Below the pieces are notes generated by a model. That model saw nothing but the letters and a program-made list of their open reading frames with translations. It had not been told where the DNA came from and did no database searches. From assembly GCF_000376385.1 (NCBI RefSeq), contig NZ_AQWN01000006.1, positions 62,001 to 126,000 of the forward strand: a stretch of DNA of 64,000 nt, read 5' to 3'. Below are positions 6,223 to 24,530 of the stretch, in pieces (the first letter of the stretch is position 1; each line of letters begins with the position of its first letter). The translations under genes and the position numbers were made by a program. Source of the stretch: Desulfurispora thermophila DSM 16022. GTDB lineage: Bacteria > Bacillota > Desulfotomaculia > Desulfotomaculales > Desulfurisporaceae.

Positions 6223-6238
6223 TATATAGTAAAATTAA

Positions 6239-8167
6239 TTAGAGTTTAAACCCGGCCACGGAGGACTGCAGGCGGGCGGCAATCTCGGCCAGCTGCTGGG
6301 TAGCGCCGGCCACCTGCTGAATGGTGGAGGTCACCTGTTCATTGCTGGCCGCCAGCTGCTGCATCCCTTCACTGGTCTGCCTAGCCCCACTGATGATTTC
6401 CTCTAACATTGCGATGTTCTTGCCGATGGCGTTAATGATATTCTGCAGGGCAACGCCGGCCTGAGAGGCCAGCTCCACACCTTCCCGCACTTCGCTGGAA
6501 CCCTGTTCCATGGTCCGCACTGCTGTTTCCACACCAGCCTGAATCTGTTGAATAAGCTGATCGATTTCCCGTGCTGCACTGGCCGACTGCTCGGCCAGTT
6601 TGCGCACTTCCTCCGCCACCACGGCAAAACCACGCCCCTGCTCGCCGGCCCGCGCTGCCTCGATGGCCGCATTCAAGGCCAACAGATTGGTCTGGTCAGC
6701 AATGCCCGTAATGATATTGGTGATATTACCAATTCGACCGGAAAGTTCTCCCAGGTTTTGTATAGACTGGCTCATCCGGGCGGAGGACTGAGCGATGGAG
6801 TTGATCTTGTCTATGGTTTTTTGCAGTGTCTCTCCGCCACTTTCCGCCAGGGCCACCACCTTTTGGGACTCCCCGGCGGTATGGGTAGCATTCTCCAGAC
6901 TTTTTTCGGCCATGGCCGCCACCTCGCTGCTGGTACCGGCCACCTCCTGCACCGTAGCGCTGACCTGCTGGGCGGAAGCCGCCAGTTCTTCACTGTTGGC
7001 CGCCAGAGTCTGAGCATCATCGGCCAGGCCGGCCAGCACCGGCTTCAGTCTGGCCTGCAATTGATCAATGGCCTGAACCAACCGGCCAATCTCATCCCGC
7101 CGGCTCAGGAACTGCTCGGGCACGGGACGCGTAAAGTCACCTCCGGCAATCAGCCCCAGGTGATCCACGGCCAGAGTGATCGGCCTGGCAATACTCCGGG
7201 CAATAGCAAAAGTGAACACCAGGGCCAGCAAAATGATGAGCAGGGAAACCAGCAGCAGGGACTGTTTCAGACCGCTAACCCGCTCCAGCACCTCTGCTTT
7301 AGGAACGTTAACGCCCAGTGACCAGCCTGTACTTTTAATGGGCACATAGGCCAATATCTTTTCCTGACCCTGGTAGGTGTACTGGCCCAAACCGGTTTCT
7401 CCTTTGGCCATTTTGCTTACTATCTCCGCCAGGGCGGTCAGAGACTGATCGGAGCGAGCTATTTCAATAAAATTTTTCTGCTCCAGAACCAACTTTTCAT
7501 CTTTATGAGCAATCGTCTTGCCCGTGCTGTCCACGGCAAAGCCATAACCGGTGCGGCCATATGTAATGCTCTTTACAAGCTCGCTGAACTTGGCCCCGTC
7601 TACCACACCAATCAGCACACCGCTGATCTCATTGCTGGCATAATGGCGGATGGGCACCGCATAAACAAAAACCACCGAGTTGTCCAGTTTGCTGACAATT
7701 GTACTGGTGATAGCAGTTTTGCCGGCTAGGGCCGCCTGGAAATAATCCCGGCCTGCCGCACTGGCTGATTTACCACTGGCAAAAAAAGCGTTGCCTGTCC
7801 GGTCGGCTATGCCCATATCCTTGAAACCCAGACTCTCCGCCCTTTGCAACTCCTCGCGCAGAACCTGCAGTTGCTCCTCCCGGGTGGCTGCGCGGTCCCC
7901 GGCCTTACCGCGGATCACGTTTCTTTCCGCCACAGCCTGCACCACATACAGGCGGGCCTGGATGCGGCTGTCCACAGTTTCCGCTGCCTGTTTGGCCAGT
8001 TGCTGCAAGGCCTCATCGGCGGCGTTCTCCAGCACACTGCCGGCCTGCCGTTCGCTGACCAGAAACAGGGACAGGCAGCCCAGCAGGACAATCGAACCAA
8101 ACAGTGCTACCATGCGCACCAGCAGGCTGGCCCGGTAATCCCACTTACTGTTTTTTTTCCCCTTCAT
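6239..8167 (-). CDS. Methyl-accepting chemotaxis protein with a dCache-type sensor domain
   Basis: Transmembrane chemoreceptor of 642 residues. It has a TM1 at about 15-37, an extracellular sensor of about 250 residues with Cache-type features ([38 protein letters not shown]), a TM2 at about 303-325, a HAMP domain beginning at [15 protein letters not shown], and a cytoplasmic signalling hairpin. The hairpin tip [20 protein letters not shown] lies around residues 485-510. It would modulate a CheA/CheW complex in response to an extracellular small molecule; the ligand cannot be read from sequence. It lies outside the che operon, separated from it by the GGDEF/HD-GYP gene, on the same strand. 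It is a conventional receptor, unlike the two MCP-like proteins in the operon. Confidence 0.93.
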
Positions 8168-10410: not shown

Positions 10411-10773
10411 TTAGCGCAGCAGCTTTTTTAGCACCATTTCCAATTGATCCGGGGTAAAGGGCTTGGTGATCCAGGCGGTGGCCCCGGCCTTGCGGGCCTC
10501 TTCTTTTTTCGCCTGCTGCGACTCGGTGGTCAGCATGATAATGGGTGTAAAACGGCAGGCCGAGTTTGCCCGAACCTGCCGGATAAAAGTTATACCGTCC
10601 AGACCGGGCATGTTAAGGTCGGTGATAACCAGATCCGGCTTTTTGGTGCTCAATTGCTTCAGCGCCTCGTCCGCCCGCTGGAAGGTATACAGCTCGTAGC
10701 CGCGACGCTCCAGGGCCAGCCTGATGCTGGCCAGCACGGTGGGAGAGTCGTCCACCGCCAGAATCTTATACAT
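10411..10773 (-). CDS. cheY: CheY-like single-domain response regulator (last gene of the che operon)
   Basis: A 120-residue receiver domain with no output domain. The acidic pair is in KILAVDDSP, the phospho-acceptor aspartate in VITDLNMPGLDG, the switch threonine in MLTTES and the lysine in WITKPF. All phosphorylation residues are present. It would be phosphorylated by the CheA of the same operon. Its ATG lies inside the end of the upstream STAS gene (8-bp overlap), suggesting translational coupling. It ends 281 bases before the GGDEF/HD-GYP start, across the riboswitch region. Its partner (flagellar motor or another target) is not evident. Confidence 0.93.
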   Translation of the reverse strand: MYKILAVDDSPTVLASIRLALERRGYELYTFQRADEALKQLSTKKPDLVITDLNMPGLDGITFIRQVRANSACRFTPIIMLTTESQQAKKEEARKAGATAWITKPFTPDQLEMVLKKLLR

Positions 10774-11014
10774 CCGGACGCACCTCCACCGCCAGCAGAC
10801 CCCTGAAAATTTCCCCCGGCCCCGCTGGGGTTAGCTCCACTTCCACCTGGGGGAATTCTTTGCGCAAAGCCACAACCAGTTGCAAACCGGCGGCATCCAG
10901 GCCGGGAGCGGTAAACACCACCTGCCTGGTCTCGCCGTTCACCTGCGCGAGGAGCCTTCGCCTTATTTCTTCAACATGAGGCAGCAAAAGCGGTAAATCA
11001 ATTTCCACCCGCAT
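10766..11014 (-). CDS. Small STAS-like protein in the chemosensory operon
   Basis: An 82-residue protein starting MRVEIDLPLL. The stretch VVFTAPGLDAAGLQLVVALRKEFPQVEVELTPAG matches the STAS (anti-sigma antagonist-like) fold around its central helix. The usual phosphorylated Ser/Thr of the D-S/T-AG motif is Ala here (LDAAGLQ), so switching by phosphorylation at that position looks impossible. ATG 11014 lies inside the end of cheA (17-bp overlap), behind an A/G-rich ribosome-binding site, and the gene overlaps the next cheY by 8 bp. STAS proteins occur in some chemosensory clusters; its partner is unknown. The STAS assignment rests on pattern resemblance only. Confidence 0.65.
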   Translation of the reverse strand: MRVEIDLPLLLPHVEEIRRRLLAQVNGETRQVVFTAPGLDAAGLQLVVALRKEFPQVEVELTPAGPGEIFRGLLAVEVRPDV

Positions 11015-13457
11015 CGAGAATTCCCCCCTTACCCTGGTCATTCATAAAGAGGCGCACCATCTCGTTGGGGTCCAGCACCAGCAACACCCGCCCGTCCCCC
11101 AGCACCGCAGCACCCATGAAGACGGACAGCCTCTTCAATTCCCCGGTCAGAGGCTTCACGATAACCACTTCTTTGCCCAGCACGGCGTCCACAGGTAAAG
11201 CGGCCTTCTGCCGCAGTACCACCAGAATTGTCTCATCCCGACAGGAAGCAGTTGTTTCCAAATATAAGCGGCTTTCCAGCAGCGGGATGATCTCCCCCCG
11301 CAGCATTGCCACGGGCCGACCGCGCACGGTCCTGATGTCGTTTTCCTCCACCCGGATGGTTTCCCCGACCGCAGCCAGGGGGATACCGTAAACCCCGCCG
11401 CCAATCCGCACCATCAGAACTTCGCTGGTGGCCAAGGTAAAGGGCAGGCTGATGATAAAATTGCTCCCCCGCCCCGGGGTTGACTCCAGCTGGATCGTAC
11501 CCCCCAGGTGGCTGATCGTTTTTTCAACCACATCCATGCCCACGCCACGCCCGGAAAGATCAGAAATTCCCTCCTTGCTGCTGAGCCCGGGCAGGAAGAC
11601 CAGTTTCAACTTCTCCCGCGCGCTCATTGCTTCCACTTGTTCGCGGGAAAGTATGCCGCCGGAGACGGCTTTTTCCGCCAAGGTTTCCACGTCAATACCA
11701 CGACCGTCGTCCGTTACCTGGATTATTATTCTTTCCCCCTGTCGACAGGCGGCAAGTTGGATAATACCCACAGGGTTTTTACCGGCTTTCAGCCGCTCTT
11801 CCGGTTCCTCCAGGCCGTGATCCAGGGCGTTGCGCACCAGATGCAACAGGGGTTCGTAAATTTCTTCGATGATGTTCCTGTCCAGGCGCGTATCTCCCCC
11901 GGAGGTGACCAACTCCACCTTTTTTTCGAGCATTCTGGCCTGGTCCCGAACGAAGCGGGGAAAACGTCCAAATACCTCCTGAACAGGCAGAAGCCATATG
12001 TCCATTACCCGGTCGTGGATTTCCCTGGCAATACGATCCAGATAAAGGAAGCGTTCCTTCAATTCCCTGGCCTGCCCATCCAGCCCCGCGGCCTCCAGCT
12101 TTTTGACCAGATAGGGCAGACTGTTCTTGGCGATGATCAGTTCCCCAGCCAGGCTCATCAGGGCGTCAGCCGTCTCCCGCCGCACCTTGAACGCGACCTG
12201 CCGGCCTTCCCCGGCAACACTGTTCCACCGCTGCTCCCCGGGAACCTTGCGCGACCGGCTGGAGAAGCTGGCCTTGCCGGCGCGCTCCGGGCCGGAACTG
12301 GGGAGCATCGCAACCGGGAAGCGCACCGGGCCCGCCCCTGTTTCTGTCTCCAGAGCAGCCAGCAAGGAGCGCGCCACCTTGATCAGCCGCTCCCTTTCCT
12401 CTTCCGGCACATCCGCAGGCTCCTGCTCCAGAGCTAGGCCGGCGCGCCCGGCAATCTGCTCCATAATTCGCCGGACCACCGGCAAAAACCCCGGTAACAC
12501 CTCCTTTTCAGCCATCAGCAGGGCCTTTTCCTGCTGCCGCAAAACTTGGAGAACACGCAGGAGCTCCTGACCGGAAAGAGGCGGCGCCTGTCCCGCTACG
12601 GACAGTACGTCGGAGGACTGCTGGATTTCTGCAAATGTTACTTCATTCAGCTCTTTCTCCAGCTCTTCCTCGTCCACCGGCCGCACAACCACCCTGTTTT
12701 CATCACTGTTTACAAAAACAAAGGTCTCTTCCACCGCCTCCCGGCCTTCGCCGGTAGCCAGGTAAAGAGTGAACACCAGGTGGTAGTCTTCGGGGTCAAG
12801 GCCGGACAAAGGCGGTACCCGGCTGTAATCCGCCATAAGCCCAGCTATGGTCCCCAGACCGGCCAGATCCTCCAGCAAGTAGCCCAAATTATGCCCCTGC
12901 CGGAAAAAATTGCGGCCAAAATCCAGCGTCAGGAAAAAGACATTTTTGCCCACGCGCAGTTCGTCACACAGAAGGCGCTTGACCTCTTCCGGCACCTGAG
13001 CCTCAGCCACTTCCAGAACAGCCGCCAAAGGCGCCGCCCCTCTTTCCGGCAGGCCAGGCTCCTTTTCCGAAGGACAGGCTGCCAGCAGTTCACTCCGGCC
13101 GTAGGATGCAATTTCCTCCAGCAACTCCTCCGGGGGCGGAAGATCTTGCCCACCGGCCAGGTCGGTCACCATGGCCTTGACATAGTCGAAACCCACCAGC
13201 AGCAAGTCCACCAGGCCGGGACCGGCTTCTATTTCTCCGCTCCGCAAGCCGTCCAGAAGGTCTTCCAGACGGTGGGTCATCTCACTTATCCCCCTGATCC
13301 CGGCGATACCGGCGGAACCTTTAAGAGTGTGCACCACTCGAAAAAGCTCATCCAGAAGTTCCGGCGACATTTCCTTTTCCAGTTCCAGGACCAGCGGTTC
13401 GATTTGGGCCAGAAGTTCCCCGGCCTCTTCCAAAAAAATTTCTTTCAGGTCAGACAT
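10998..13457 (-). CDS. cheA: Chemotaxis histidine kinase CheA
   Basis: An 819-residue kinase. The N-terminal Hpt domain carries the phosphorylated His43 in VVHTLKGSAG. A region at about 165-270 (VGKNVFFLTLDFGRNFF..., ending EETFVFVN) resembles a P2-like alpha/beta domain. The dimerization domain begins FKVRRETADALMSLAGELI. The kinase boxes are HLVRNALDHGLEEPEE (N), DDGRGID (G1), PGLSSKE (F) and SGRGVGMDVV (G2), and a CheW-like domain is C-terminal (SEVLMVRIGGGVYGIPLAAV). All catalytic boxes look intact. It lies between a cheY (6 bp upstream) and the STAS gene (overlapping). It should signal to the two CheYs and CheB of the operon. Confidence 0.96.
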   Translation of the reverse strand: MSDLKEIFLEEAGELLAQIEPLVLELEKEMSPELLDELFRVVHTLKGSAGIAGIRGISEMTHRLEDLLDGLRSGEIEAGPGLVDLLLVGFDYVKAMVTDLAGGQDLPPPEELLEEIASYGRSELLAACPSEKEPGLPERGAAPLAAVLEVAEAQVPEEVKRLLCDELRVGKNVFFLTLDFGRNFFRQGHNLGYLLEDLAGLGTIAGLMADYSRVPPLSGLDPEDYHLVFTLYLATGEGREAVEETFVFVNSDENRVVVRPVDEEELEKELNEVTFAEIQQSSDVLSVAGQAPPLSGQELLRVLQVLRQQEKALLMAEKEVLPGFLPVVRRIMEQIAGRAGLALEQEPADVPEEERERLIKVARSLLAALETETGAGPVRFPVAMLPSSGPERAGKASFSSRSRKVPGEQRWNSVAGEGRQVAFKVRRETADALMSLAGELIIAKNSLPYLVKKLEAAGLDGQARELKERFLYLDRIAREIHDRVMDIWLLPVQEVFGRFPRFVRDQARMLEKKVELVTSGGDTRLDRNIIEEIYEPLLHLVRNALDHGLEEPEERLKAGKNPVGIIQLAACRQGERIIIQVTDDGRGIDVETLAEKAVSGGILSREQVEAMSAREKLKLVFLPGLSSKEGISDLSGRGVGMDVVEKTISHLGGTIQLESTPGRGSNFIISLPFTLATSEVLMVRIGGGVYGIPLAAVGETIRVEENDIRTVRGRPVAMLRGEIIPLLESRLYLETTASCRDETILVVLRQKAALPVDAVLGKEVVIVKPLTGELKRLSVFMGAAVLGDGRVLLVLDPNEMVRLFMNDQGKGGILDAGGN

Positions 13458-13463
13458 GCCGGT

Positions 13464-13841
13464 TCACCCCAATATCTCGACGTATGCCAGTAGATCCGCA
13501 GGCTCCACCGGCTTCACCAGGTACATGTTGCACCCGGCTTTGAAACCGCGGTCCATGTCCCCCACCCCGGCCTCAGTGGTAATCATCAGAACCGGCACCG
13601 GCTCCAGGTCCCCGGCCCGTCGAATCTCCTTTATAAAACTGTAACCGTCCATCTTGGGCATGTTCACATCCACCAGCAATATGTCAAATTTACCGGCATA
13701 AATCTTTTCCAGCCCCTCGTAACCGTTGGCCGCCTCTTCCACCTGGTGCCCAACGCCTTCCAGCACTTCGCGGTAATACTGCCGCGCAGTAAACGAATCA
13801 TCTATTATCAGAATCCTGGACACAGCTTTCACCATCTCCAT
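13464..13841 (-). CDS. CheY-like single-domain response regulator
   Basis: A 125-residue receiver. Acidic residues are in ILIIDDSFTARQYY, the phospho-acceptor in ILLVDVNMPKMDG, the switch threonine in MITTEAG, and the lysine in YLVKPVE. It lies between cheB (16 bp upstream) and cheA (6 bp downstream). This is the second stand-alone receiver of the operon. Two CheYs with one kinase often mean an output CheY plus a phosphate sink; which is which cannot be told here. Confidence 0.92.
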   Translation of the reverse strand: MEMVKAVSRILIIDDSFTARQYYREVLEGVGHQVEEAANGYEGLEKIYAGKFDILLVDVNMPKMDGYSFIKEIRRAGDLEPVPVLMITTEAGVGDMDRGFKAGCNMYLVKPVEPADLLAYVEILG

Positions 13842-13857
13842 TTACTTTGCCCGGCGC

Positions 13858-14949
13858 TCATTGTACAGCCTTGATCAGCGCTTCGGCAATAGCGTAGTGG
13901 GGTAAAACCAATTTGGCACCACCCCTTTTTACCGCTTCGCCCGGCATCCCCCAGACCACCGCCGTCTCTTCGGCCTCGGCTATGGTCATACCACCGGCCC
14001 GCCTTATATCCACCATGGCGTCTGCCCCGTCGTCACCCATGCCGGTCAGCAGCACCGCCACCAGGTTCCCGGCGTCCAAGCACTCCAGGGCAGAGCGGAA
14101 AGCCACATCTACCGAAGGTCTGAAAAGGGCATCCATGGGCCGGTGGGAGTGCCGTAGCCGGCAAACCTTCTCGCCAGGCCGGCGGTCGACCCTCAGGTGC
14201 ACTCCCCCCCGGGCCACCACCGCCAGCCCCGGCACGAGAGGCATACCCTCGACTGACTCTTTAACCTCTAGCCGGCATTCCCGGTTCAGCCGTTCAGCAA
14301 AAGGCCGGGTGAAGCTTTCAGGCATATGCTGCACCACCACCACGGGAGCGCCGAAGTTCGCCGGCAAAAGGGGCAGTATTTCCATCAAAGTCTTCGGGCC
14401 TCCGGTGGAAACACCGATTAACACCAGTTTTTCGCTTTCACCAGGCACAGTCCTTGTCTTGCCTGGCCTGGCGGGCGGGGCACCGGCCGTGGCAGAATCG
14501 GCCGGACCTGAACCAGGTCTGCGCTTAAATTTCATGGCCCCGACCCGCACCCGGCGGGCGGCCTTGATCTTGTCACGGATCTCCCGGGCCGCGTTTTTTA
14601 TGTTCAAGGACACGGTACCATCCGGCTTGGGAACATAATCCACCGCCCCCAGTTCCAGCGCCTCAAAGGTGGTCAGTGCCCCTTTTTGGGTGAGAGAGGA
14701 CACCACCAGAACCGGGCAGGGACGCTGGGCCATAATGTATTGGATGGCCGTAAGGCCATCCATGTGCGGCATATTGATGTCCATGGTAATCACATCGGGT
14801 TCCAGGGACAGATTCATCTCAACAGCTTCCCTGCCATCACGCGCCGCCCCCACCACCTCCAGCTCCCGATCTTCCTCGATAATTTCCCGCAGGTACTTGC
14901 GCATCAGCGCAGAATCGTCAACGATCAGCACCCGCGTCTTCCTGTTCAT
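13858..14949 (-). CDS. cheB: Chemoreceptor glutamate methylesterase CheB
   Basis: A 363-residue protein with an N-terminal receiver (VLIVDDSALMRKYL; VITMDINMPHMDGLTA; VSSLTQKG) and a C-terminal methylesterase. The esterase triad is visible: Ser in LIGVSTGGPKT, His in VVVQHMPESF and Asp in LLTGMGDDGADAM. It removes methyl groups from receptors, opposing CheR. The linker (about 140-190) is Arg/Pro-rich and variable. The start overlaps the end of the triple-CheW gene by 32 bp, so the two are probably coupled. Confidence 0.96.
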   Translation of the reverse strand: MNRKTRVLIVDDSALMRKYLREIIEEDRELEVVGAARDGREAVEMNLSLEPDVITMDINMPHMDGLTAIQYIMAQRPCPVLVVSSLTQKGALTTFEALELGAVDYVPKPDGTVSLNIKNAAREIRDKIKAARRVRVGAMKFKRRPGSGPADSATAGAPPARPGKTRTVPGESEKLVLIGVSTGGPKTLMEILPLLPANFGAPVVVVQHMPESFTRPFAERLNRECRLEVKESVEGMPLVPGLAVVARGGVHLRVDRRPGEKVCRLRHSHRPMDALFRPSVDVAFRSALECLDAGNLVAVLLTGMGDDGADAMVDIRRAGGMTIAEAEETAVVWGMPGEAVKRGGAKLVLPHYAIAEALIKAVQ

Positions 14950-16438
14950 TCTCCTCTACTCCTCCTGTGAATTCCGCCGCCACCTGCGCCACCTCCATCT
15001 GCTCTGCGCCGGTCAAAACACTCTGCAGTTTCAAGAGCAGGATTGACCGCTGTGAGTCCGCCGACCTGACCACGCCCTGCAGGTAACCGGTATCCAGGTG
15101 AGCCCCCAGAACCGCCGGCACCGGAGCGATCTGGTCAGCGGCAATCTTGCGCACCTCCCGCACGGCATCCACGACGAGGCCGGTGGGAACTCCGTTCATG
15201 TCCACCACAACGATGCGGGACCGGTCGTCGTTTTCCCTGGCCGGAAGACTCAGCTTCAACCTCAGGTTGATCACAGGCAGAATGGTACCCCGGATATTGA
15301 TCACACCTTCCACGTAAGCCGGCGCTCTGGGCACCCTGACTATTTCCGGCGGGCGGATGATTTCCTTCACGCTTTGGATGTTTACAGCGTATTCTTCCTC
15401 CTGCAGGTGGAAGATGACAAACTGCTCCTCGCTGACGACTCTTCGCTCCGGGCCCGCCTCCGTCTCCTCATCGCCGGATCCGTCCAGGTTGATTTCTCCC
15501 TCGGACAAAATGCTGTGGGGATCCAGCAGGTAGATCAGCCGCTTTCCTTCGCCCAGCTTGCAGACACCGGTAAGGTTTTTGGTATCATCTCCTCTCAGCA
15601 ATTCCGGCAGTGGCTCGATCTCTTCCGCTGTAAAGCGCAGGACCTCGGTGATGGAGTCCACACCCAGGCCGACGACCATTTTTTTCTCATTAACACCGAG
15701 GTTCAGCACTAGCACCCTGGCCCGATCGTCGTAGGGCCTGTCGGGTAGATCGAAGAACCGCCTCAGGTTCAGCATGGGCACGGTGCGCCGGCGCAGCGAG
15801 AAAAGGCCGTCCATATAGTGGGGAAAGCCGGGGGAGCGGGAAATCCGGTCCGGTACCCGGACGATTTCCTGCACCGTCTCGATGGCAACGGCGTACTCCT
15901 CCTCAGCCAACCTGAATCCCACAAACTGCTTCAACTCCTCCTGGCCGGCGGCCTCATTTTGCTTTTCCAGTACCGCCGCTCCGGAGTAATGCGCGGAACC
16001 GGCCCCCTCCAACCGCGGAAACAGTACCTCAATATTGATCACCATCACCATGGTGCTGCCATCGTCCGATTTTATCACGCGGGAGATCAATTCCTCCCGC
16101 CCCCGGGCGGCGCACAGGGTATCCTCCGTGGCATTCTCCAGGTTGATTACTTCCGACATGCGGTCCACTATATAGCCTATGGTTTCCCCCCGGTATTCAA
16201 GCACCACCACCCTGGTAGCGTCGGTTTCCACCACATCCGGTATATTAAAGCGCTTACGCCCGTCTATTACCGGCAAAATATTGCCTCGCAGGTTGGCCAG
16301 GCCGGAGAAGTAGTGCGGCGTACCGGGCACCCGCACCATCTCGGGCAGACGAATGATTTCCCGCACATACTCCAGTTCAATACCAAACAGCTCTTTGCCC
16401 AGGTAAAAGGTGACCATCTGACCACCAGCATTTTCCAT
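14918..16438 (-). CDS. Triple-CheW protein: three CheW domains in one chain
   Basis: A 506-residue protein made of three CheW repeats and little else. Domain 1 is about 5-150 (MVTFYLGKELFGIELEYV; GLANLRGNILPVIDGRKRF). Domain 2 is about 168-315 (FVGFRLAEEEYAVAIETV; GLFSLRRRTVPMLNLRRFF). Domain 3 is about 338-485 (FVIFHLQEEEYAVNIQSV; GVINIRGTILPVINLRLKL). Each keeps the hydrophobic core and the LRG/LRR-x-P turn. A single CheW normally couples one CheA to receptors, so three in a chain could act as a built-in array linker. No ordinary single-domain CheW gene is visible in the window. It lies between the tandem MCP and cheB, and overlaps cheB. Confidence 0.93.
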   Translation of the reverse strand: MENAGGQMVTFYLGKELFGIELEYVREIIRLPEMVRVPGTPHYFSGLANLRGNILPVIDGRKRFNIPDVVETDATRVVVLEYRGETIGYIVDRMSEVINLENATEDTLCAARGREELISRVIKSDDGSTMVMVINIEVLFPRLEGAGSAHYSGAAVLEKQNEAAGQEELKQFVGFRLAEEEYAVAIETVQEIVRVPDRISRSPGFPHYMDGLFSLRRRTVPMLNLRRFFDLPDRPYDDRARVLVLNLGVNEKKMVVGLGVDSITEVLRFTAEEIEPLPELLRGDDTKNLTGVCKLGEGKRLIYLLDPHSILSEGEINLDGSGDEETEAGPERRVVSEEQFVIFHLQEEEYAVNIQSVKEIIRPPEIVRVPRAPAYVEGVINIRGTILPVINLRLKLSLPARENDDRSRIVVVDMNGVPTGLVVDAVREVRKIAADQIAPVPAVLGAHLDTGYLQGVVRSADSQRSILLLKLQSVLTGAEQMEVAQVAAEFTGGVEENEQEDAGADR

Positions 16439-16483
16439 GGGTCATCCTCCCTTCCAGGGTGCTGAAAAGGCCGCGCACCCCTT

Positions 16484-18421
16484 TTACACTTGCTGCAGTT
16501 CGTCCGCCAGGGCCGCGATCTCCTCGATGGCCCGAGCCAATTCCTGCATCCCGGCCGCCTGCTGCTTGGCCGCTGCAGCCGCCTCCTCAGCTGCCGAACT
16601 GGCCTCCTGGGCCGCCGCAGCAATCTGGTCCACCGCCTTCCTGGCCTGTTCCACCGCCACGGATATCTGGTCGGCGTTTTCCAGGATTGCTTCGGCGCCC
16701 TTCAGCACCGTTTTCATGTCGCTCTCGATCTGTACCAGATCGTCGGTGGTCTTCTGAGCACGCTTTACCTCTTCGGCGGCGCTTTCGCCCACCCGCACCA
16801 CATCATCAATGACCACTTTCACCTGATCCTGGATAGCCTTGACCAAATCTTTGATCTGCTCCGCGTTTTTAGTGCTGTCCTGGGCCAGATTGCGGATGTC
16901 TGAGGCCACCACTGCAAAGCCCTTGCCGAATTCCCCGGCCCGGGCCGCCTCAATGGCCCCGCTCACCGCCAGCATGTTGGTCTGTATGCCCACATTGACA
17001 ATGGTGTCCACGATCTTGTCGATGCGCCGGGTGATAACCTCCAGTTCCTTGATTTTCTGCACATTTTGCTGGTTGGCGGCCAGCGCCTCTCCAATCCCCC
17101 GGATCAGCGCATCCACGGCCACCTTGTTCTGAGCCAGCATATCCGATAGATTTTTGGTTGTATCCAGGGACTTCCTGGCCGTGCCAGCCACATTCTTAAC
17201 CATGTTGTCTATATTGGCCGCCGCCTCCGCTGATTCATCCGCTGCCTTGGCCTGACGCTGGGCGCCGATGGAAATCTGGTTCAGAGCCTCCATGATCTGC
17301 TGAGAGGCCTGGTTGGCTTCCTCGATGGCGGCGGAAAGCTCTTCCGCGGCGGCGGCCAGTTCTTCCGAGGATTTGTTGATGTCGGTAGAGGCGCGCAGAT
17401 TGTCGGCCATTTCCGAAAGTTCTTCCGCCGCGGAGGTGATGTCTCCCATTACCTTGGCCTGATGTTCCACCGCGACCAGGGACTCCTCCGCCGCGCCAGC
17501 CTGTTCTTCCGCCGCCGCCGCCACATCCGAAATCCCCTTCTGGAACTCCAGGGCGGCTTTTTCTAGCTCCACCGAGAGTTTGTCAATATCCACCGTCAAA
17601 CTGATAACATCTTCCATTTCCCGGCCAATTCTTACCAGGCTTTCGTTGATCTCCTTACCCTTTCCAGCCTCTCCCCGGGCAGTGGTCGCCGCCTGGTTGA
17701 CCGCTCCAGCGATCATCTTGACCTCCCCCTGGATGGTGTCAACCAATTCCCGTATGTCGTTGGCCGCCTTTTCTGAAATCTCCGCCAGTGTGCGCACTTC
17801 ATCGGCCACCACCGCAAAACCTTTGCCGTGCTCACCGGCCCGGGCAGCCTCTATGGCAGCGTTGAGGGCCAGCAAATTGGTCTGATCAGCGATTTTCACC
17901 ACGGTGCTCACAATGTTGCCAATGCTCTCGGCCTGTTTTTCCAGCTGGGCCACCAGATCCGCGGATTCAGCATTGCGTTCTGCCGCAACATTGACGCCAT
18001 CCACCAGGCTGGCTATGTCCCGCATGACATGGTTAACCAGTTGCTGCACTGCCCGGCCCCTTTCCAGAGCCTCGGCAGCCCCCTTGGCGCTGGCTTTTAT
18101 GTTGCCCACGATCTGGTTCACGGCGGCAAGGGACTCCTGGGTGGCCCCACCCGCCTCCTGAGCCCCGGTGGATATCTGTTCCATGGCCGCCCGCAGTTCC
18201 TCTACCGCCGAGGTGGCCTCTTGCACGCTGGAAGACATCTGCTCGGTAGCCGCCGCCAGGCGCTCAGCAATCTGCTGCTGTTTGGCAAATGTTCTCGCCT
18301 GCTTCCTTTGTTGCTCCATCTTCTTCTGCAGTTCCTTGTCCTCCCTGATGGACTTGCTTCCCTCTTTCACCCCGGGTTGCAGACTGTCCTGGGGCAGTGG
18401 CGATAAGGTTTTTTGTGCCAT
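16484..18421 (-). CDS. Soluble MCP-like protein with two tandem signalling hairpins and no sensor domain
   Basis: A 645-residue, almost wholly helical, Ala/Glu-rich protein with no signal peptide, membrane segment or recognisable ligand domain. Two chemoreceptor tips occur in one chain. The first (around residues 175-215) reads [20 protein letters not shown] and [11 protein letters not shown]. The second (around 470-510) reads [20 protein letters not shown] and [11 protein letters not shown]. Coiled-coil heptads surround each tip. Ordinary MCPs have one hairpin. The second tip departs from the usual [11 protein letters not shown] core at VSG, so the two may contact CheA/CheW differently. It lies upstream of the triple-CheW gene. 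FrzCD is a known sensor-less cytoplasmic MCP but has one hairpin. Confidence 0.9.
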
Positions 18422-18568
18422 TAGCCATACCTCCTACCAAAAATAATAAATATTAATTTTTAATGCTCTTAAAAGAACATACATTCCACTTGAGTCTTTC
18501 ACAAAGTTTCCATCAGCCCCGAAAATCTTCCTTTTACCAAACAGCAGCTTGGATAACTAAAAATTTAA

Positions 18569-19657
18569 TTAAAAAAACTCGATATTGCCGGCCATCCCAC
18601 CGCTATCTTCATCGATACTGGCTCCCGGTTGGAGGGCGCGGCGATGGACAGCCCGTTCGCTTTCCATGGTGTACATCTCTTCCAGCTCTTGCAGGATATC
18701 AAACTTTTTAATTTCCTTCCCTGCTTCGCAACCGGCCAGCAGTTCCTCCACCCGCAACAAAATGTCCCGCACATGGGATATTTGCTGGGCCACCGCATCC
18801 TGAAATTGAAAGGCGGTAATACCCTCATCCAGGTAGCGATCCATAGTTTTCAGCTCCGCGGCAATTCTAGCCGCATCCGCCGCCGCATCTTCGTCCCACT
18901 GCCGGTGGAGGGCCAACAGTTCGCGAACTTCTTTTTGACCGTTCGTCAACTCGTCAGCAACTGCCTTGAGGTCGGCGGTACTATTTTCCATATCTGATAT
19001 TTTATCCCTAATATTCTGCAAGAGCAGGTGACCAAACTGCCTAACACTTTGTACTGCTTTCCCGGATTGGCCCGCCAAGTTCTGGATCTCTCCGGCTACC
19101 ACTGCAAAACCGCGCCCGGCCTCGCCAACCCTGGCCGCCTCAATGGCGGCGTTCAGTGCCACCAGGCGAATGCGGGCAGATATTTCCTCCAACTCGTTTA
19201 AAATACCGAAAAGTTTCTCAGCTTTTTGCTCTAGGTCGAATATCACCTGATGCATTTCTTTCGCCACGCCCATGCGATCCTGCAACAGAGCAAGAAGTTT
19301 TTCCATATTTTGATATGCATGGTAAAAAGTCTCTTCCTGCCTACTGCGGCCGTACTGTTGATCCTTGAGCAAAACTTCCAGAGAGGATAGACTCTGGCGC
19401 ACCCGGGCCATCACTTGCCCCACCGCGTCAGCAGACTTTAAAACACCTTCTTCCGCGGTTCGGACGGATTCTTCCAGGTTGGCTCGTAGCACAGGGAATA
19501 GTTTTAACAGCTGCTCGTACACCTTTCTTTCCCCGCTAGAGATGCAATCCTCTGACCCGCCCCTGGTGGCCAGCCAAAGATGAGCGGCAACTAAGCCACA
19601 CAATATTCCGGCCAAAAACAGCAAGGCATAAAACATTTTTCCATACCCCTGTTTCAC
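18569..19657 (-). CDS. Short membrane-anchored MCP-like protein with a C-terminal CheZ-like DxxxQ motif
   Basis: A 362-residue protein with one N-terminal membrane helix (about 9-29), no periplasmic sensor and no HAMP. A central signalling-hairpin-like stretch holds [19 protein letters not shown] and [11 protein letters not shown] (around 160-195). Further on, the helix [16 protein letters not shown] carries Asp287 and Gln291. The F-Q-D-x-x-x-Q pattern is the same as in the active-site helix of the CheY-P phosphatase CheZ. It overlaps cheR by 4 bp upstream and is separated from the tandem MCP by 147 bases. The name MCP is safe; a phosphatase role is only inferred. Confidence 0.82.
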
Positions 19658-20475
19658 TTTTGATATATAATGGCTTCTTTGAATCTGCGCAACTTGAAAA
19701 TTGGTGTTATCCTGCTCATGGATTCGGAATGGCCTAGAAAAATGAACCCGCCGGGCTCCAGAGAGCGGTAAAAACCCAGGGCCACCTCCCGTCTGGAATG
19801 ATCATCGAAATATATCAAAACGTTACGGCAAAAAACAGCATGGAACCCGCTCATCCGCTCCATGGCTTCCCTATCCATCAAATTCAGCCGGTACAGACAG
19901 ACGCGTTTTTTTACATCCGGCCTAACCCAGTAACCGTTTCCGTCGAAACGAAAATATTTTTGCAAATAGTCCACCGGTACATCCTTTACCGCCCTAGCAC
20001 CGTAATACGCCCTTTCGGCCGATTTGAGCGCTTCCGTATTGATATCGGTGCCGTGCACCTCAAAGTGCATTCCTGTATCACCAAGCATCTCCAGTAATAT
20101 AATGGCCAGCGTGTAGGGCTCCTCTCCGGTGGAGCAGCCGGCGGACCAGACTTTCAGCTTGCTGCCCCGGAGGTTCTGAGCCAAAAGCGGGATTACTTCC
20201 TCGGCAAAGCACTTCAACTGCATATACTCGCGGAAAAAATACGTCTCGTTGACGGTCAAAGAATTGACCAAAAATTCAAGTTCTCTTTTCGCGGAATGAA
20301 ACCGCAGGTGGTTGAAATAAAGGCTGAAACTTTTAAAGCCCAGTTCCTGCATACGTTTTTCCACGCGTTTGGTAACATAATAATTTTTGTCGGCCCCAAA
20401 TCTGATCCCGGTTTTCTGGTAAATAAATTCGGCGAGGCGGGTAAAATCGGCTGCATTCAGGATTGCACCACTCAT
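19654..20475 (-). CDS. cheR: Chemoreceptor glutamate methyltransferase CheR
   Basis: A 273-residue SAM-dependent methyltransferase acting on receptor glutamates. The N-terminal helical domain begins at [14 protein letters not shown]. The SAM-binding core shows [40 protein letters not shown] and [14 protein letters not shown], in the order of the CheR family. Full-length. It overlaps the HEAT gene upstream and the short MCP gene downstream by four bases each (ATGA), indicating one translationally coupled operon. The lack of a C-terminal tether partner is normal for Bacillota CheR. Confidence 0.96.
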
Positions 20476-21008
20476 AGGCTTTTCCTCACCAATTCAAGTA
20501 CGTAGCGGAGATAAGGGTAATCGCCAAATTTGGCAATTGTCCCGGCCACCCTGTCCAGCAGATCCACATCCTCAGGCCCACCCAGCACCCCAAGGCATTC
20601 CAGGGCCGCAGCCAGAACGTTCTGATTTTCTACTTCCCCACTTGAGATCAGCCGCTCTAAAAAGCGACGCACCAGCCCCACCGCCGCTTCGCTTCTGATC
20701 CCGGCAAGTATGTTGAAACAGAGTATTTTTAAATCCGGGTCGGAGTTGTGGAGCAATTGTTCCAGACGATCCATGTACATGACACCCAATTCCTGCAGCG
20801 CCTCCACCGCCAGGTTGCGCAGATGGGCTTCGGGAGAAGAAAGGAGTGAAATAAAATTCTCCACTACCTCGGGTGCGCCCAACCGGACGGCCTGCACAAA
20901 GGCCGCCTCTCTTACTGCCGGCTCCTGCGTCTTGACCAGCAACTCAAAGATTGTTTTTAGATCGCCATCAGCAGCATATCTGTTGATCCTCTCAAAGATA
21001 TCATCCAT
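20472..21008 (-). CDS. HEAT-repeat protein, first gene of the chemosensory operon
   Basis: About 178 residues of repeated alpha-helical hairpins with the HEAT/PBS-lyase spacing: EPAVREAAFVQAVRLGAPEVVENFISLL, SPEAHLRNLAVEALQELG, DPDLKILCFNILAGIRSEAAVGLV, and NVLAAALECLGVLGGPEDVDLL. No catalytic motif is seen. Such folds usually bind proteins. The start is taken as ATG 21008 because GGAGG lies upstream (spacing about 13, long); ATG 21032 has no visible ribosome-binding site. It overlaps cheR by four bases and heads the operon, so it probably serves the chemosensory complex as adaptor or regulator. Its partner is unknown. Confidence 0.75.
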   Translation of the reverse strand: MDDIFERINRYAADGDLKTIFELLVKTQEPAVREAAFVQAVRLGAPEVVENFISLLSSPEAHLRNLAVEALQELGVMYMDRLEQLLHNSDPDLKILCFNILAGIRSEAAVGLVRRFLERLISSGEVENQNVLAAALECLGVLGGPEDVDLLDRVAGTIAKFGDYPYLRYVLELVRKSL

Positions 21009-21317
21009 CTTATTGTTCTGCCCTCCTTCCATATAACTTCATATCAAACCCGCTGTTTAAACACTGGCATTAATCGAGTAGGAGGGGGCGGCTAGCCCCC
21101 AACCTCTCACACCACCCTTATCTATTAAACTCAAATTAGGTAACAGGAAAGCTAGCCTAAGCTATCCTTACATCAAAAAACTAATTAATAAATTATTAAC
21201 AAGAAACTTAACTTCGACGTAATGTTTTTTTATCCTACCATTTTTGTCAATTTACCCCCCCCCCGCATAAAATTTTCTTATAGATGTATAAAATTATCTT
21301 ATCAATCATCCCGGAAT
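21009..21317 (-). other. Upstream region of the chemosensory operon, with a C10 homopolymer and a GC-rich hairpin
   Basis: No gene is seen. On the plus strand a run of ten C residues lies at 21255-21264. On the minus strand this is G10, followed a few bases later by TAAATTGACA, a possible -35 without a clear -10. GGGGGCTAGCCGCCCCC (minus strand, around 21083-21100) can form a strong short hairpin in the leader. The rest is AT-rich. It must contain the operon promoter, but no convincing full match was found. Confidence 0.5.
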
Positions 21318-21366: not shown

Positions 21367-21969
21367 CTACTCTCCCCTGGCCGGCGTTTTCAACAGCAGT
21401 TCGATCTGGCGCCACAGCTGGGGCAGCCCCTCCCCAGTGCGGGCGGAAAATGGGATCAGGGGCTGTTCATCCGGCAGGTTTAAGGCGTTTTTAATTACAG
21501 CCAATTGCTTTAATCTCTGGTTGTTGGACAGCTTGTCCGCTTTGGTGGCCACCAGCACGGCGGGCACCCGGTAGTAACCCAGCCATTCCCACAGCTGCCG
21601 GTCATGCTGGCCGGGCGCGTGGCGGATGTCCAGCAGCAGCAACACACCCCGCAACTGGGAGCGTTTGAGCAGGTATTCCTCAATCATGGTGCCCCACTGC
21701 TGCTTCATTTCCTCCGACACCGCAGCAAAGCCGTAACCCGGCAAATCCACCAGAAAAAAGTTCTTGTTGATCAAGAAAAAATTCAGCGCCCTGGTCCGGC
21801 CGGGGGTCTTGCTGGACTTGGCCAGCCCCTGCCGCCGGACCAGTTTGTTGATCAGGGACGACTTGCCCACATTGGAGCGCCCGGATACGGCCACCTCCGG
21901 GAAGGGAGTATCCGGGCACTGCTTTAGTGTCATTGCACTTTTGGTAAACTCGGCACTCAGGATTCTCAT
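21367..21969 (-). CDS. engB: Ribosome-biogenesis GTPase EngB/YsxC
   Basis: A 200-residue P-loop GTPase needed for 50S subunit assembly. The G motifs are visible: G1 GRSNVGKSS, G2 TPGRTRALNFF, G3 DLPGYGFA, and G4 TKADK. Its ATG overlaps the lonA stop by four bases, and lon-engB adjacency is common in Bacillota. Full length, nothing unusual. Confidence 0.96.
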   Translation of the reverse strand: MRILSAEFTKSAMTLKQCPDTPFPEVAVSGRSNVGKSSLINKLVRRQGLAKSSKTPGRTRALNFFLINKNFFLVDLPGYGFAAVSEEMKQQWGTMIEEYLLKRSQLRGVLLLLDIRHAPGQHDRQLWEWLGYYRVPAVLVATKADKLSNNQRLKQLAVIKNALNLPDEQPLIPFSARTGEGLPQLWRQIELLLKTPARGE

Positions 21970-24392
21970 GAATGGATCTGTGTTCCTCCCCCGGGAGTAA
22001 TCACCGGCTGGTAGCCGGCCACCTCGGGCGGCAACAGCTCGGGCAGGTTGCCCACCGTGGCGGCATCATCGTCGGCCTCGGCCGGCAGCAGGGCGATATC
22101 CAGCACCTCGTCCATGTGCGCCACGGTGATGAACTCCAGCTGGCGTTTCACATTGGCCGGGATTTCTTCCAGGTCTTTATTATTATCTTTGGGCAAAAGC
22201 ACGGTTTTAATACCGGCCCGGTGGGCGGCCAGCACCTTTTCTTTAATGCCACCCACCGCCAGCACCCGGCCGCGCAGCGTTATTTCGCCGGTCATAGCCA
22301 CGTCGCAGCGCAATTTGCGGCCGGTGAGAGCCGAAGCCAGCGCACAGGCCAGGGTGATGCCGGCCGAAGGCCCGTCTTTGGGGATGGCCCCTTCCGGCAG
22401 GTGAATGTGCACGTCGTACTTCTCAAACATCTCCTGGCTGATGTTCAGTTCGGCGGCCCGGCTGCGCACGTAACTGTAAGCCGCCTGGGCCGACTCGCGC
22501 ATAACCTCGCCCAGCTTGCCGGTCAGGGTTAACTTGCCGCTGCCCTGATACAGCGTTACTTCCACCGCCAGGGTATCGCCTCCCACCTCGGTCCAGGCCA
22601 GACCGGTAGCCACACCCACCTGGTCCTCCTGTTCAGCCACACCGTAGCGGTAACGGGGCATGCCCAGATAGCTCTCCATATTCTGAGCGGTGATCTTCAC
22701 CTTTTCAGCCTTGCCGGTGACAATCTGCCGGGCTGCCTTGCGGCAGAGGGCGGCAATTTTCCGCTCCAGATTGCGCACACCGCTTTCCCGCGTGTATTCG
22801 CGGATAATGCGCCGCAGGGCATTTTCCGAAACCGCAAAGACCTCCTGGGAGAGCCCGTGCTCTTTGACCTGTTTGGGCACCAGGTGACGCAGGGCGATCT
22901 GCAGTTTTTCCTCTTCGGTGTAACCGGGTATTTCAATCAATTCCATCCGGTCCAAAAGCGGACGCGGAATGTTGTACTTGACATTGGCCGTGGTAATGAA
23001 CATAACGTTGGAAAGGTCAAAGGGCACCTCAATGTAGTGGTCGCTGAAAGCATTGTTCTGTTCCGGATCCAGCACTTCCAACAGAGCCGAAGCCGGGTCA
23101 CCGCGGAAATCGCTGCTCATCTTGTCTATTTCGTCCAGCAAAAATACCGGGTTTTTGGTGCCCGCGTTCTTCATGCCCTGGATGATCCGGCCGGGCAGGG
23201 CCCCCACATAGGTGCGACGATGACCACGAATTTCGGCCTCATCCCGCACACCGCCCAGGGAGATGCGCACAAATTTGCGATCCAGAGCCCGGGCAATGGA
23301 GCGGCCCAGCGAGGTCTTGCCCACACCGGGCGGTCCCACCAGGCAAATGATCGGCCCTTTGAGCTTTTTGGCCAGTTTGCGTATGGCCAGGTATTCCAGA
23401 ATTCTTTCCTTGGGTTCTTTCAAACCGTAATGATCTTCTTCCAGGATTCTCTCCGCCTGGTTCAAGTCCAACCGGTCACGGGTGCTCTTGCTCCAGGGCA
23501 AAGCCACCAGCCAGTCCAGGTAGTTGCGCACCACTGTGACCTCGGCGGCCATGGGCGACATTTTCTCCAGGCGCTCCACTTCCTTGAGCGCCTTCTCCTC
23601 TACATCTTTGGGCAGTTTGGCCTGGGCAATTTTGCGCCGGTACTCTTCCCCCTCGGCCAAACGCTCATCCTTTTCCCCCAGCTCATTCTGAATGGCTTTG
23701 ATCTGTTCCCGCAGATAGTACTCCTTCTGAGTCTTTTCCATTTGCTTGCGCACGCGGATACTGATCTTGCGCTCCAGTTCCACAATTTCCAGTTCTTTGC
23801 TCACCAAGGCGCACAATTTTTCCAACCGCCTGGCCACGTCCAGCGCTTCCAGCACGGTTTGCTTTTCTTCCAGACGCAGGGGCAGGTGCGAGGCCACAAT
23901 ATCGGCCAGACGACCCGGATCCTGCAGATTGGCCACCGCCACCATGGTTTCCGGCGGAATCTTTTTGGACAGCTTGACATACTGTTCAAAGCTGTAGATC
24001 AGATTGCGCATCAGCGCCTCAATCTCGGGCGTCTTGCGGCTTTCTTCATTCAACTGCTCAACCTGCACCAGGAAATATGGATCCTGGGAGACATAGCGCA
24101 CAATCCTCGCCCGGGCAATGCCCTCCACCAGGATGCGAATGGTACCTCCAGGCAATTTGAGCAGCTGTTTGACTTCGGCCAGAATACCAATCTGGTAGAT
24201 ATCTTCTTCGCCGGGCTCTTCAGTATGCACATCTTTCTGGGTGGCCAGAAAAATGGCCTTATCTCCGGACATGGCTTCCTCAATGGCCTGGACCGATTTA
24301 TGGCGACCTACGTCTAGGTGAACAATCATATAAGGGAAAACCAGTATGCCGCGCAGGGGTAGCAAAGGTAGCTCCAACATTTGCCCGTTCAT
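21966..24392 (-). CDS. lon: ATP-dependent protease LonA
   Basis: An 808-residue soluble AAA+ serine protease that degrades misfolded and regulatory proteins. It starts [22 protein letters not shown], the typical N-domain opening. The AAA module has Walker [10 protein letters not shown] and Walker [11 protein letters not shown]. The protease domain carries the catalytic Ser in PKDGPSAG and the Lys in [13 protein letters not shown] 24392 is chosen because AAGGAGGTG sits five bases upstream; the frame stays open to 24443 without a better site. It follows lonB on the same strand and overlaps engB. Confidence 0.96.
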
Positions 24393-24506
24393 TACAACAC
24401 CTCCTTGAATGATGGCCAACGGGTCAGCTAACTGGTTCACCAAAGTATATATTATTCTATCATACAGGCTGCAGTACCGCTATAGCAATAACTGACATAA
24501 ATGACG

Positions 24507-24530
24507 TAAACCCGGCAAAAACCGGGTTTA
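24507..24530 (-). terminator. Hairpin at the lonB stop codon
   Basis: AAACCCGG and CCGGGTTT pair across a short A/T loop, and the hairpin includes the lonB TAA. There is no strong U-run, so it may only slow or partly terminate transcription before lonA. Confidence 0.45.

What the first reader, a model, noticed from the sequence alone, without database searches (positions are those of the whole stretch)
10411..21032. Compact chemosensory operon with non-standard parts: a candidate undescribed array type
Ten genes are in one orientation, most overlapping or separated by 6-45 bases (147 at most): HEAT protein, cheR, short MCP with a CheZ-like motif, double-hairpin soluble MCP, triple-CheW, cheB, cheY, cheA, STAS, cheY. 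There is no flagellar gene, no single-domain CheW and no CheC/CheD/CheX/CheZ. The receptors in it have no sensor domain, so the input must come through protein partners such as the HEAT or STAS proteins, or other receptors. The output is unclear. Neighbouring c-di-GMP enzymes and the separate dCache MCP may be linked. Each part is known from somewhere; the combination is what I have not seen described.
Basis: partly seen in the sequence, partly recalled or inferred. Interest (0 to 1): 0.85.

Follow-up and report, generated by a model that had tools for sequence, protein, structure and literature searches.

The report
F9-class cytoplasmic chemosensory array operon
The ten-gene operon is a complete set of parts for a known but poorly understood kind of internal bacterial sensor array (the F9 class, as in Vibrio cholerae), and its small receptor carries what looks like a built-in off-switch enzyme that appears not to have been described.

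Summary
In detail: ten same-strand genes with the stated domains. The claim of an undescribed array type is wrong. The double-hairpin receptor is DosM and the triple-CheW is CheW3, the two signature proteins of the F9 class (V. cholerae cluster I), known by cryo-ET as a two-layered cytoplasmic array (PMC9321776, PMC7534058). The window CheA falls inside the clade of DosM/CheW3-linked CheAs from many phyla; grouping it with the flagellar F1 CheAs is rejected. The same parts, in a slightly different order, recur in about 10% of sampled genomes of the phylum and in Proteobacteria. DosM tips are 300 residues apart in 78 of 83 homologues.

What may be new: the short receptor carries a CheZ-type active-site pair (D287xxxQ291) and a conserved C-terminal N(V/I)E(L/F)F tail, kept across phyla and shared with two F7-linked McpA-like receptors. 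I propose a receptor-borne CheY phosphatase. The small protein after CheA has a STAS fold and resembles CheS; in relatives STAS is fused to CheA's P1-P2 domains. Output remains unknown.

The parts
20472..21032 (-). HEAT-repeat protein (186 aa), first gene of the operon
   Evidence: Pfam HEAT_2 4e-14; 25-36% identical to the HEAT protein between cheB and cheR in proteobacterial F9 clusters
19654..20475 (-). cheR methyltransferase
   Evidence: Pfam CheR 3e-55; 42-46% to proteobacterial F9 CheR
18569..19657 (-). short receptor (362 aa), called zMCP here: one N-terminal TM segment, MCP hairpin, CheZ-like QFQDAVAQ, disordered tail ending NIEFF
   Evidence: Pfam MCPsignal; TM hydropathy 2.26; AF2 helix 41-311, then two short helices and a disordered tail; family
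18785..18808 (-). CheZ-type motif QFQDAVAQ, residues 284-291; D287 and Q291 correspond to E. coli CheZ D143 and Q147
   Evidence: alignments; HMM alignment to E. coli CheZ at its active site
18572..18586 (-). C-terminal tail NIEFF, residues 358-362 (N[VI]E[LF]F in the family)
16484..18421 (-). dosM: double-signalling-domain receptor, 645 aa, tips at residues 190 and 490
   Evidence: 47-51% identical to DosM-type receptors of five proteobacterial clusters; tip spacing exactly 300 aa
14918..16438 (-). cheW3: concatenated triple CheW adaptor, 506 aa
   Evidence: three CheW stretches, Pfam 3e-100; 32-37% to proteobacterial CheW3 over nearly the full length
13858..14949 (-). cheB methylesterase with receiver domain
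   Evidence: Pfam CheB 3e-59 and Response_reg
13464..13841 (-). cheY1, the CheY directly upstream of cheA
   Evidence: Pfam Response_reg; nearest to other upstream CheYs of F9 clusters
10998..13457 (-). cheA kinase (Hpt, H-kinase_dim, HATPase, CheW)
   Evidence: Pfam; inside the F9 clade
10766..11041 (-). small STAS-fold protein, CheS-like
   Evidence: Pfam STAS 0.003; hhalign to proteobacterial small ORF 97%, to F7 STAS 95%; fold matches RsbS and SLC26 STAS
10411..10773 (-). cheY2, the CheY that travels with zMCP and STAS
   Evidence: groups with 26 downstream F9 CheYs and 2 F7 McpA-linked CheYs, SH-aLRT 95

Best explanation
The operon encodes a complete F9-class chemosensory system. DosM dimers, with a signalling tip at each end, act as 300-residue rulers between two CheA/CheW3 base plates and hold together a flat, double-layered cytoplasmic array. 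Because DosM has no sensor, signals enter through other receptors that share the lattice and perhaps through the HEAT protein. CheR and CheB set methylation. CheA phosphorylates two CheYs. The STAS protein acts like S. meliloti CheS, binding the P1-P2 side of CheA and steering phosphate between the two CheYs. The short receptor zMCP combines an MCP tip with a CheZ-type D-x-x-x-Q active site in its helical bundle and a C-terminal docking tail, and so acts as a receptor-borne CheY phosphatase. Shown by sequence here: class membership, conserved parts, motif, tail, STAS fold. Shown elsewhere for the class: the double-layer array. Inferred: phosphatase activity, CheS-like routing, output.
For: Class: DosM and CheW3 both present; CheA inside the F9 clade, SH-aLRT 96, and a clade with F1 rejected (p-AU 3.6e-50); the same gene set in Bacillota and in Methylobacterium, Sphaerotilus, Eleftheria, Azospirillum and Methylosinus, Alteromonas, Rheinheimera and others; tip spacing 300 aa in 78/83; literature PMC9321776, PMC7534058. 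Phosphatase: motif and tail co-occur in non-DosM MCPs (40 with both, 4 motif only, 3 tail only, 57 neither; Fisher 1.4e-20; relatedness not corrected); the five tail-bearing receptors that lack the strict motif still keep DxxxQ; the strict motif is in none of 100 DosMs and none of 14 other MCPs of this genome; the motif lies 112-117 aa after the tip in nearly all; Pfam CheZ hits in 3/22, best 2.5e-4; the family HMM aligns to E. coli CheZ at the active site; Campylobacterota F9 operons hold a free 131-aa protein with the same motif region and EFF tail; F7 McpA-like receptors share the motif and an xFF tail. STAS: P1-P2-STAS fusions; CheS precedent in PMC12654446.
Against: The CheZ resemblance rests on one helix and weak HMM scores, and the window receptor itself does not hit Pfam CheZ. 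No enzymatic test exists. Many of the F9 operons examined have neither zMCP nor CheC/CheX nearby (many loci are truncated). CheX/CheC presence excludes zMCP in raw counts (0/40 with zMCP against 7/37 without, p 0.004) but not after phylogenetic pairing. In S. oneidensis the F7-linked McpA associates with the F6 array rather than its own system (PMC9855816), so zMCP need not sit in the F9 array. The STAS protein could act on an anti-sigma factor instead. F9 membership was not checked directly against V. cholerae sequences.
Confidence: 0.8

Rival explanations
1. F9 array as above, but the zMCP tail is a CheR/CheB tether (variant of NWETF) and the FQDxxxQ stretch is only a structural part of the bundle; there is no receptor-borne phosphatase.
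For: The tail N[VI]E[LF]F resembles the tether in length and position. CheR is in the operon.
Against: In P. aeruginosa the valine at position 2 of the related McpA tail prevents interaction with any of its four CheRs (PMC7184735). D and Q are kept while neighbouring positions vary, and the module occurs free of any receptor domain in Campylobacterota.
Confidence: 0.3
2. The STAS protein is the output: a partner switch on an anti-sigma factor, as proposed for S. oneidensis Che1 (CrsA/CrsR and RpoS), so the array controls a stress response rather than steering CheY phosphate.
For: STAS fold with RsbS and anti-sigma antagonists among the best PDB matches; anti-sigma antagonists in F7 clusters (PMC7184735, PMC9855816).
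Against: The usual phosphorylatable serine position reads DAAG in the window protein; no anti-sigma kinase gene was recognised beside it; fusion of STAS to P1-P2 in relatives points to CheA.
Confidence: 0.3
3. The system's output is c-di-GMP turnover through the neighbouring PAS-GGDEF-HD-GYP enzyme.
For: HD-GYP genes on the same strand lie within or near 10 of 47 Bacillota F9 loci; this genome has only 12 HD_5 matches in 2.8 Mb.
Against: A terminator-like hairpin lies between cheY2 and the GGDEF gene (10181-10156); close homologues of the enzyme occur far from F9 in other genomes; relatedness of the 10 loci was not corrected.
Confidence: 0.25
4. An undescribed array type.
For: Gene order differs from the usual one: HEAT-cheR-zMCP lies upstream of dosM (compare).
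Against: All signature parts and the CheA clade match F9 (PMC9321776).
Confidence: 0.03

Closest known systems
F9-class chemosensory system (V. cholerae cluster I: DosM VC1403, CheW3 VC1402, CheA VC1397)
   Same: DosM with two signalling domains, concatenated triple CheW, no sensor domain in DosM, CheA/CheB/CheR/CheY, a TM-anchored short MCP in the cluster (VC1394 is described as 24H with a TM region, PMC7534058), coexistence with a flagellar system
   Different: Here HEAT, cheR and the short MCP lie upstream of dosM instead of downstream of cheB and cheA. I found no account of HEAT, STAS or the DxxxQ/tail features for F9 in the papers I could read.
McpA-like receptors of F7 systems (CttP/PA0180, VCA1088, SO_2117)
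   Same: In two F7-type clusters (Aeromonas and Pseudomonas plasmids) the McpA-like receptor carries FQDxxxQ and a tail ending in FF, and sits with an orthologous CheY and a STAS protein. A conserved McpA C-terminus of 'important yet unclear' role is published (PMC7184735).
   Different: F7 clusters have CheD, a single-domain CheW and an Aer2-like receptor, and no DosM or CheW3.
CheZ and CheT phosphatases
   Same: DxxxQ pair on the second helix of a helical hairpin, then a linker and a C-terminal peptide. CheT is a published DxxxQ CheY phosphatase distant from CheZ (PMC12654446).
   Different: CheZ and CheT are free proteins; here the motif is part of a chemoreceptor.
CheS of S. meliloti
   Same: Small STAS-only protein of a chemotaxis cluster that binds CheA and works with two CheYs (PMC12654446)
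   Different: Sequence similarity to CheS itself was not tested. In some Bacillota F9 the STAS is fused to P1-P2 of a split CheA.

Membership tests
F9 chemosensory class | DosM: chemoreceptor with two tandem signalling domains | tested here: met
F9 chemosensory class | CheW3: concatenated triple CheW | tested here: met
   three CheW stretches, near full-length match to other CheW3
F9 chemosensory class | CheA belongs to the F9 CheA clade | tested here: met
   clade of DosM/CheW3-linked CheAs, SH-aLRT 96. Reference is linkage, not the MiST models. A few deep Bacillota rows fall outside.
F9 chemosensory class | Two-layered cytoplasmic array | not testable with these tools
   needs cryo-ET; DosM tip spacing conserved
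F9 chemosensory class | Direct match to V. cholerae cluster I sequences | not tested
F1 flagellar class | CheA groups with flagellum-linked Bacillota CheAs; CheC/CheD present | tested here: not met
   p-AU 3.6e-50; no CheC/CheD in the block. The genome's other CheA is in the F1 group.
CheZ family (PF04344) | Significant whole-family HMM match | tested here: not met
   window receptor has no CheZ hit; 3 of 22 relatives do, best 2.5e-4
CheZ-type (DxxxQ) phosphatases | Conserved D and Q four residues apart on the C-terminal hairpin helix | tested here: met
CheZ-type (DxxxQ) phosphatases | Dephosphorylates CheY-P | not testable with these tools
   needs an assay
STAS / CheS | STAS fold, encoded beside cheA | tested here: met
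   weak E-values in the fold search

The most novel reading that the evidence does not exclude
The short receptors of F9 systems and the McpA-like receptors of F7 systems are one family of receptor-phosphatases: chemoreceptors with a CheZ-type DxxxQ active site and a C-terminal CheY-docking tail, inherited with a dedicated CheY and a CheS-like STAS protein that steers phosphate at CheA. This would supply the missing off-switch of both systems and explain the conserved McpA C-terminus.
Probability: 0.5. Interest if true: 0.72.

Novelty: new member of a known kind. Interest (0 to 1): 0.5.

Why it matters
F9 arrays have been imaged but their inputs, outputs and signal termination are unknown, and a cheA deletion in V. 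cholerae shows no phenotype under standard conditions (PMC7534058). The comparison here defines a conserved accessory set (HEAT, STAS, second CheY, short receptor) across phyla and gives two testable mechanisms: phosphatase activity in a chemoreceptor, and STAS control of CheA phosphotransfer. The same reading offers a role for the unexplained conserved tail of McpA-like receptors in F7 systems.

Tried and rejected
A new array type: rejected by DosM, CheW3 and the CheA tree. F1 membership for the window CheA: rejected. The three miscellaneous CheAs tried as outgroup had very long branches and were dropped. In that first tree the window row itself was lost by de-duplication, so I rebuilt it. 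Exclusion of CheC/CheX by zMCP: significant in raw counts, not after phylogenetic pairing, so only suggestive. c-di-GMP as output: recurrent HD-GYP neighbours, but a terminator-like hairpin intervenes and the enzyme is common elsewhere. Foldseek of the zMCP model finds only MCPs and other long helical proteins, no CheZ among the 50 matches shown. An hhalign of all P1-P2 proteins against STAS was weak (13.6%); the HMM search found STAS in five of the 14.

Full report
What is there. Ten ORFs on the - strand at 10411-21032 read, in order of transcription, HEAT, cheR, short MCP, double MCP, triple CheW, cheB, cheY1, cheA, STAS, cheY2. Seven of the nine junctions overlap or have gaps of 16 bases or less; the other two are 45 and 147. 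A strong terminator-like stem at 21363-21321 separates the block from ysxC and lon upstream, and another at 10181-10156 follows cheY2, so the block is plausibly one transcript. The genome (2.8 Mb, 99.6% complete) also has a flagellar cluster with its own cheW, cheA and cheB beside motA/motB and hook genes (my reading) and a lone CheW. That other CheA falls in the F1 group.

Identity. The double MCP is 47-51% identical over most of its length to receptors in five named proteobacterial clusters, and the triple CheW matches theirs over nearly its full length. Those clusters read dosM-cheW3-cheB-HEAT-cheR-cheY-cheA-small ORF, then in most of them a further CheY and an MCP. Published work names exactly these two proteins, DosM and CheW3, as the signature of class F9 (PMC9321776) and describes the F9 array of V. 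cholerae as two CheA/CheW3 plates with DosM spanning between them (PMC7534058). In the CheA tree the window kinase sits with DosM/CheW3-linked kinases of Bacillota and other phyla (18 + 22 rows, SH-aLRT 96), and holding it with the F1 kinases costs 304 log-likelihood units (p-AU 3.6e-50). Some deep Bacillota DosM-linked kinases fall outside this clade, so F9 as defined by linkage may not be one clade.

Distribution. A DosM match at E <= 1e-60 is present in 41 of 398 sampled genomes of the phylum. Most of these loci share the block, usually in the order dosM-cheW3-cheB-HEAT-cheR-cheY-cheA followed by accessory genes. The window differs by having HEAT-cheR-zMCP upstream of dosM; one other family (L062, L063) shows a similar rearrangement. 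In a scan of named genomes the 80 loci kept span Pseudomonadota, Acidobacteriota, Campylobacterota, Bacteroidota, actinobacteria and others, and many show the same set including STAS, CheY2 and the short receptor.

DosM as a ruler. The distance between the two tip motifs is 300 residues in 78 of 83 DosMs and 301 in three, which fits a fixed plate-to-plate distance. In the Bacillota loci aligned the second tip is distinctive ([17 protein letters not shown] and variants).

The short receptor. It has one N-terminal TM segment, an MCP hairpin, and past the hairpin the sequence QFQDAVAQ. E. coli CheZ has FQDLTGQ at its active site (D143, Q147; positions from my own knowledge of CheZ). Without selecting on the motif, 41 non-DosM MCPs lie in F9 operons: 29 have motif and tail, 3 the motif only (one ends in low-quality sequence, one is cut short, one has two extra residues after the tail), 4 the tail only, and 5 neither; those five end like ordinary MCPs. 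The tail-only ones, and one more, all still carry D-x-x-x-Q at that place. Across all loci motif and tail are tied together (40/4/3/57, Fisher 1.4e-20), though relatedness inflates this. DosMs and 14 other MCPs of this genome lack the strict motif. In the aligned family Q284, D287, Q291 and F362 are invariant (D, Q291 and F362 partly by selection, Q284 not). Sequence support for homology with CheZ is weak but falls at the right place: Pfam CheZ in 3 of 22 members, best 2.5e-4, NCBIfam CheZ 0.037 for one, and a family HMM that aligns to E. coli CheZ through FQD...Q at E 8e-4 for 2485 sequences. The AF2 model shows a helix from 41 to 311, two short helices and a disordered tail, an order like CheZ's hairpin, linker and C-terminal peptide.

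Supporting context. Campylobacterota F9 operons encode a free 131-residue protein with the motif region (YQDIVSQ, NQDILSQ) and an EFF tail. Two F7-type clusters on plasmids have an McpA-like receptor with FQDRVSQ and an xFF tail next to a CheY and a STAS gene. The window CheY2 groups with 26 downstream F9 CheYs and those two F7 CheYs (SH-aLRT 95), so receptor, CheY2 and STAS look like a module shared by both classes. Ortega et al. noted that the McpA C-terminus is highly conserved, has valine where a CheR tether needs an aromatic residue, and has an important yet unclear role (PMC7184735). CheX or CheC genes lie in 7 of 37 F9 operons without zMCP and 0 of 40 with it (p 0.004); the independent-pairs test has too few contrasts to confirm this. 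I found no paper proposing a phosphatase site in these receptors among those searched; most subscription journals and preprints were not searched.

The STAS protein. The 78-87 aa proteins after cheA are annotated 'hypothetical' in the proteobacterial records. The Bacillota set matches the proteobacterial set (hhalign 97%) and annotated F7 STAS proteins (95%); the model has STAS topology and its top matches are STAS domains. In a Bacillota subgroup with a split CheA the P1 and P2 domains sit on a separate protein whose C-terminus matches the F9 STAS profile in the best cases (5e-5 to 4e-4 in L046, L047, L057). This links STAS physically to the P1-P2 side of CheA. S. meliloti CheS, a STAS protein, binds CheA and steers phosphate between two CheYs, and CheT there is a DxxxQ phosphatase (PMC12654446). 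F9 has the same four elements: CheA, two CheYs, a STAS protein and a DxxxQ protein.

Input and output. DosM has no sensor, so input must come through other receptors in the lattice; the genome's other MCPs were not tested for fit. HD-GYP genes recur near Bacillota F9 loci (10 of 47), but in the window a terminator-like hairpin stands between cheY2 and the PAS-GGDEF-HD-GYP gene. The output therefore remains unknown.

Verdict. The operon is a new member of a known kind, in a rearranged order. The part that a specialist would find new is the receptor-borne DxxxQ site with its tail, shared by F9 and F7, and the STAS-P1-P2 fusions. Both are sequence inferences that a simple in vitro assay would settle.

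Noticed in passing
L046:10612-11565, L047:8430-9383, L057 and other Bacillota F9 loci: Split CheA: kinase core of about 490-780 aa followed by a separate Hpt-P2 protein, with a C-terminal STAS-like domain in the best cases. These loci lack zMCP and a separate STAS gene.
   Followed up: partly
L182:15425-15820, L183:15282-15677: Campylobacterota F9 operons hold a free 131-aa protein with the zMCP motif region and an EFF tail but no receptor domain.
   Followed up: partly
L095:16517-17278, L099:16454-17305, L092:3149-3940: ParA-like ATPases inside or beside F9 operons, after the STAS ORF in the two proteobacterial loci; possibly array positioning. None in the window operon.
   Followed up: no
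L046, L050, L066, L072, L076, L080 and others: HD-GYP proteins of about 200 aa next to the F9 operon, same strand, in several Bacillota families.
   Followed up: partly
L085, L092, L093, L094, L098, L176, L177, L179: F9 operons that carry CheX/CheC-type phosphatase genes and no zMCP.
   Followed up: partly
L045:394-1512 and 5182-6309: Two closely similar zMCP copies flank a PAS-GGDEF-HD-GYP gene that is a 68% match, in its GGDEF-HD part, to the one beside the window operon.
   Followed up: partly
window 6239-8167 (-): dCache-HAMP MCP downstream of the GGDEF-HD-GYP gene; whether it feeds the F9 or the F1 system was not tested.
   Followed up: no
window 21966-26207 (-): Two Lon-type protease genes in a row (Lon and a LonB-like one) next to ysxC and clpX.
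   Followed up: no
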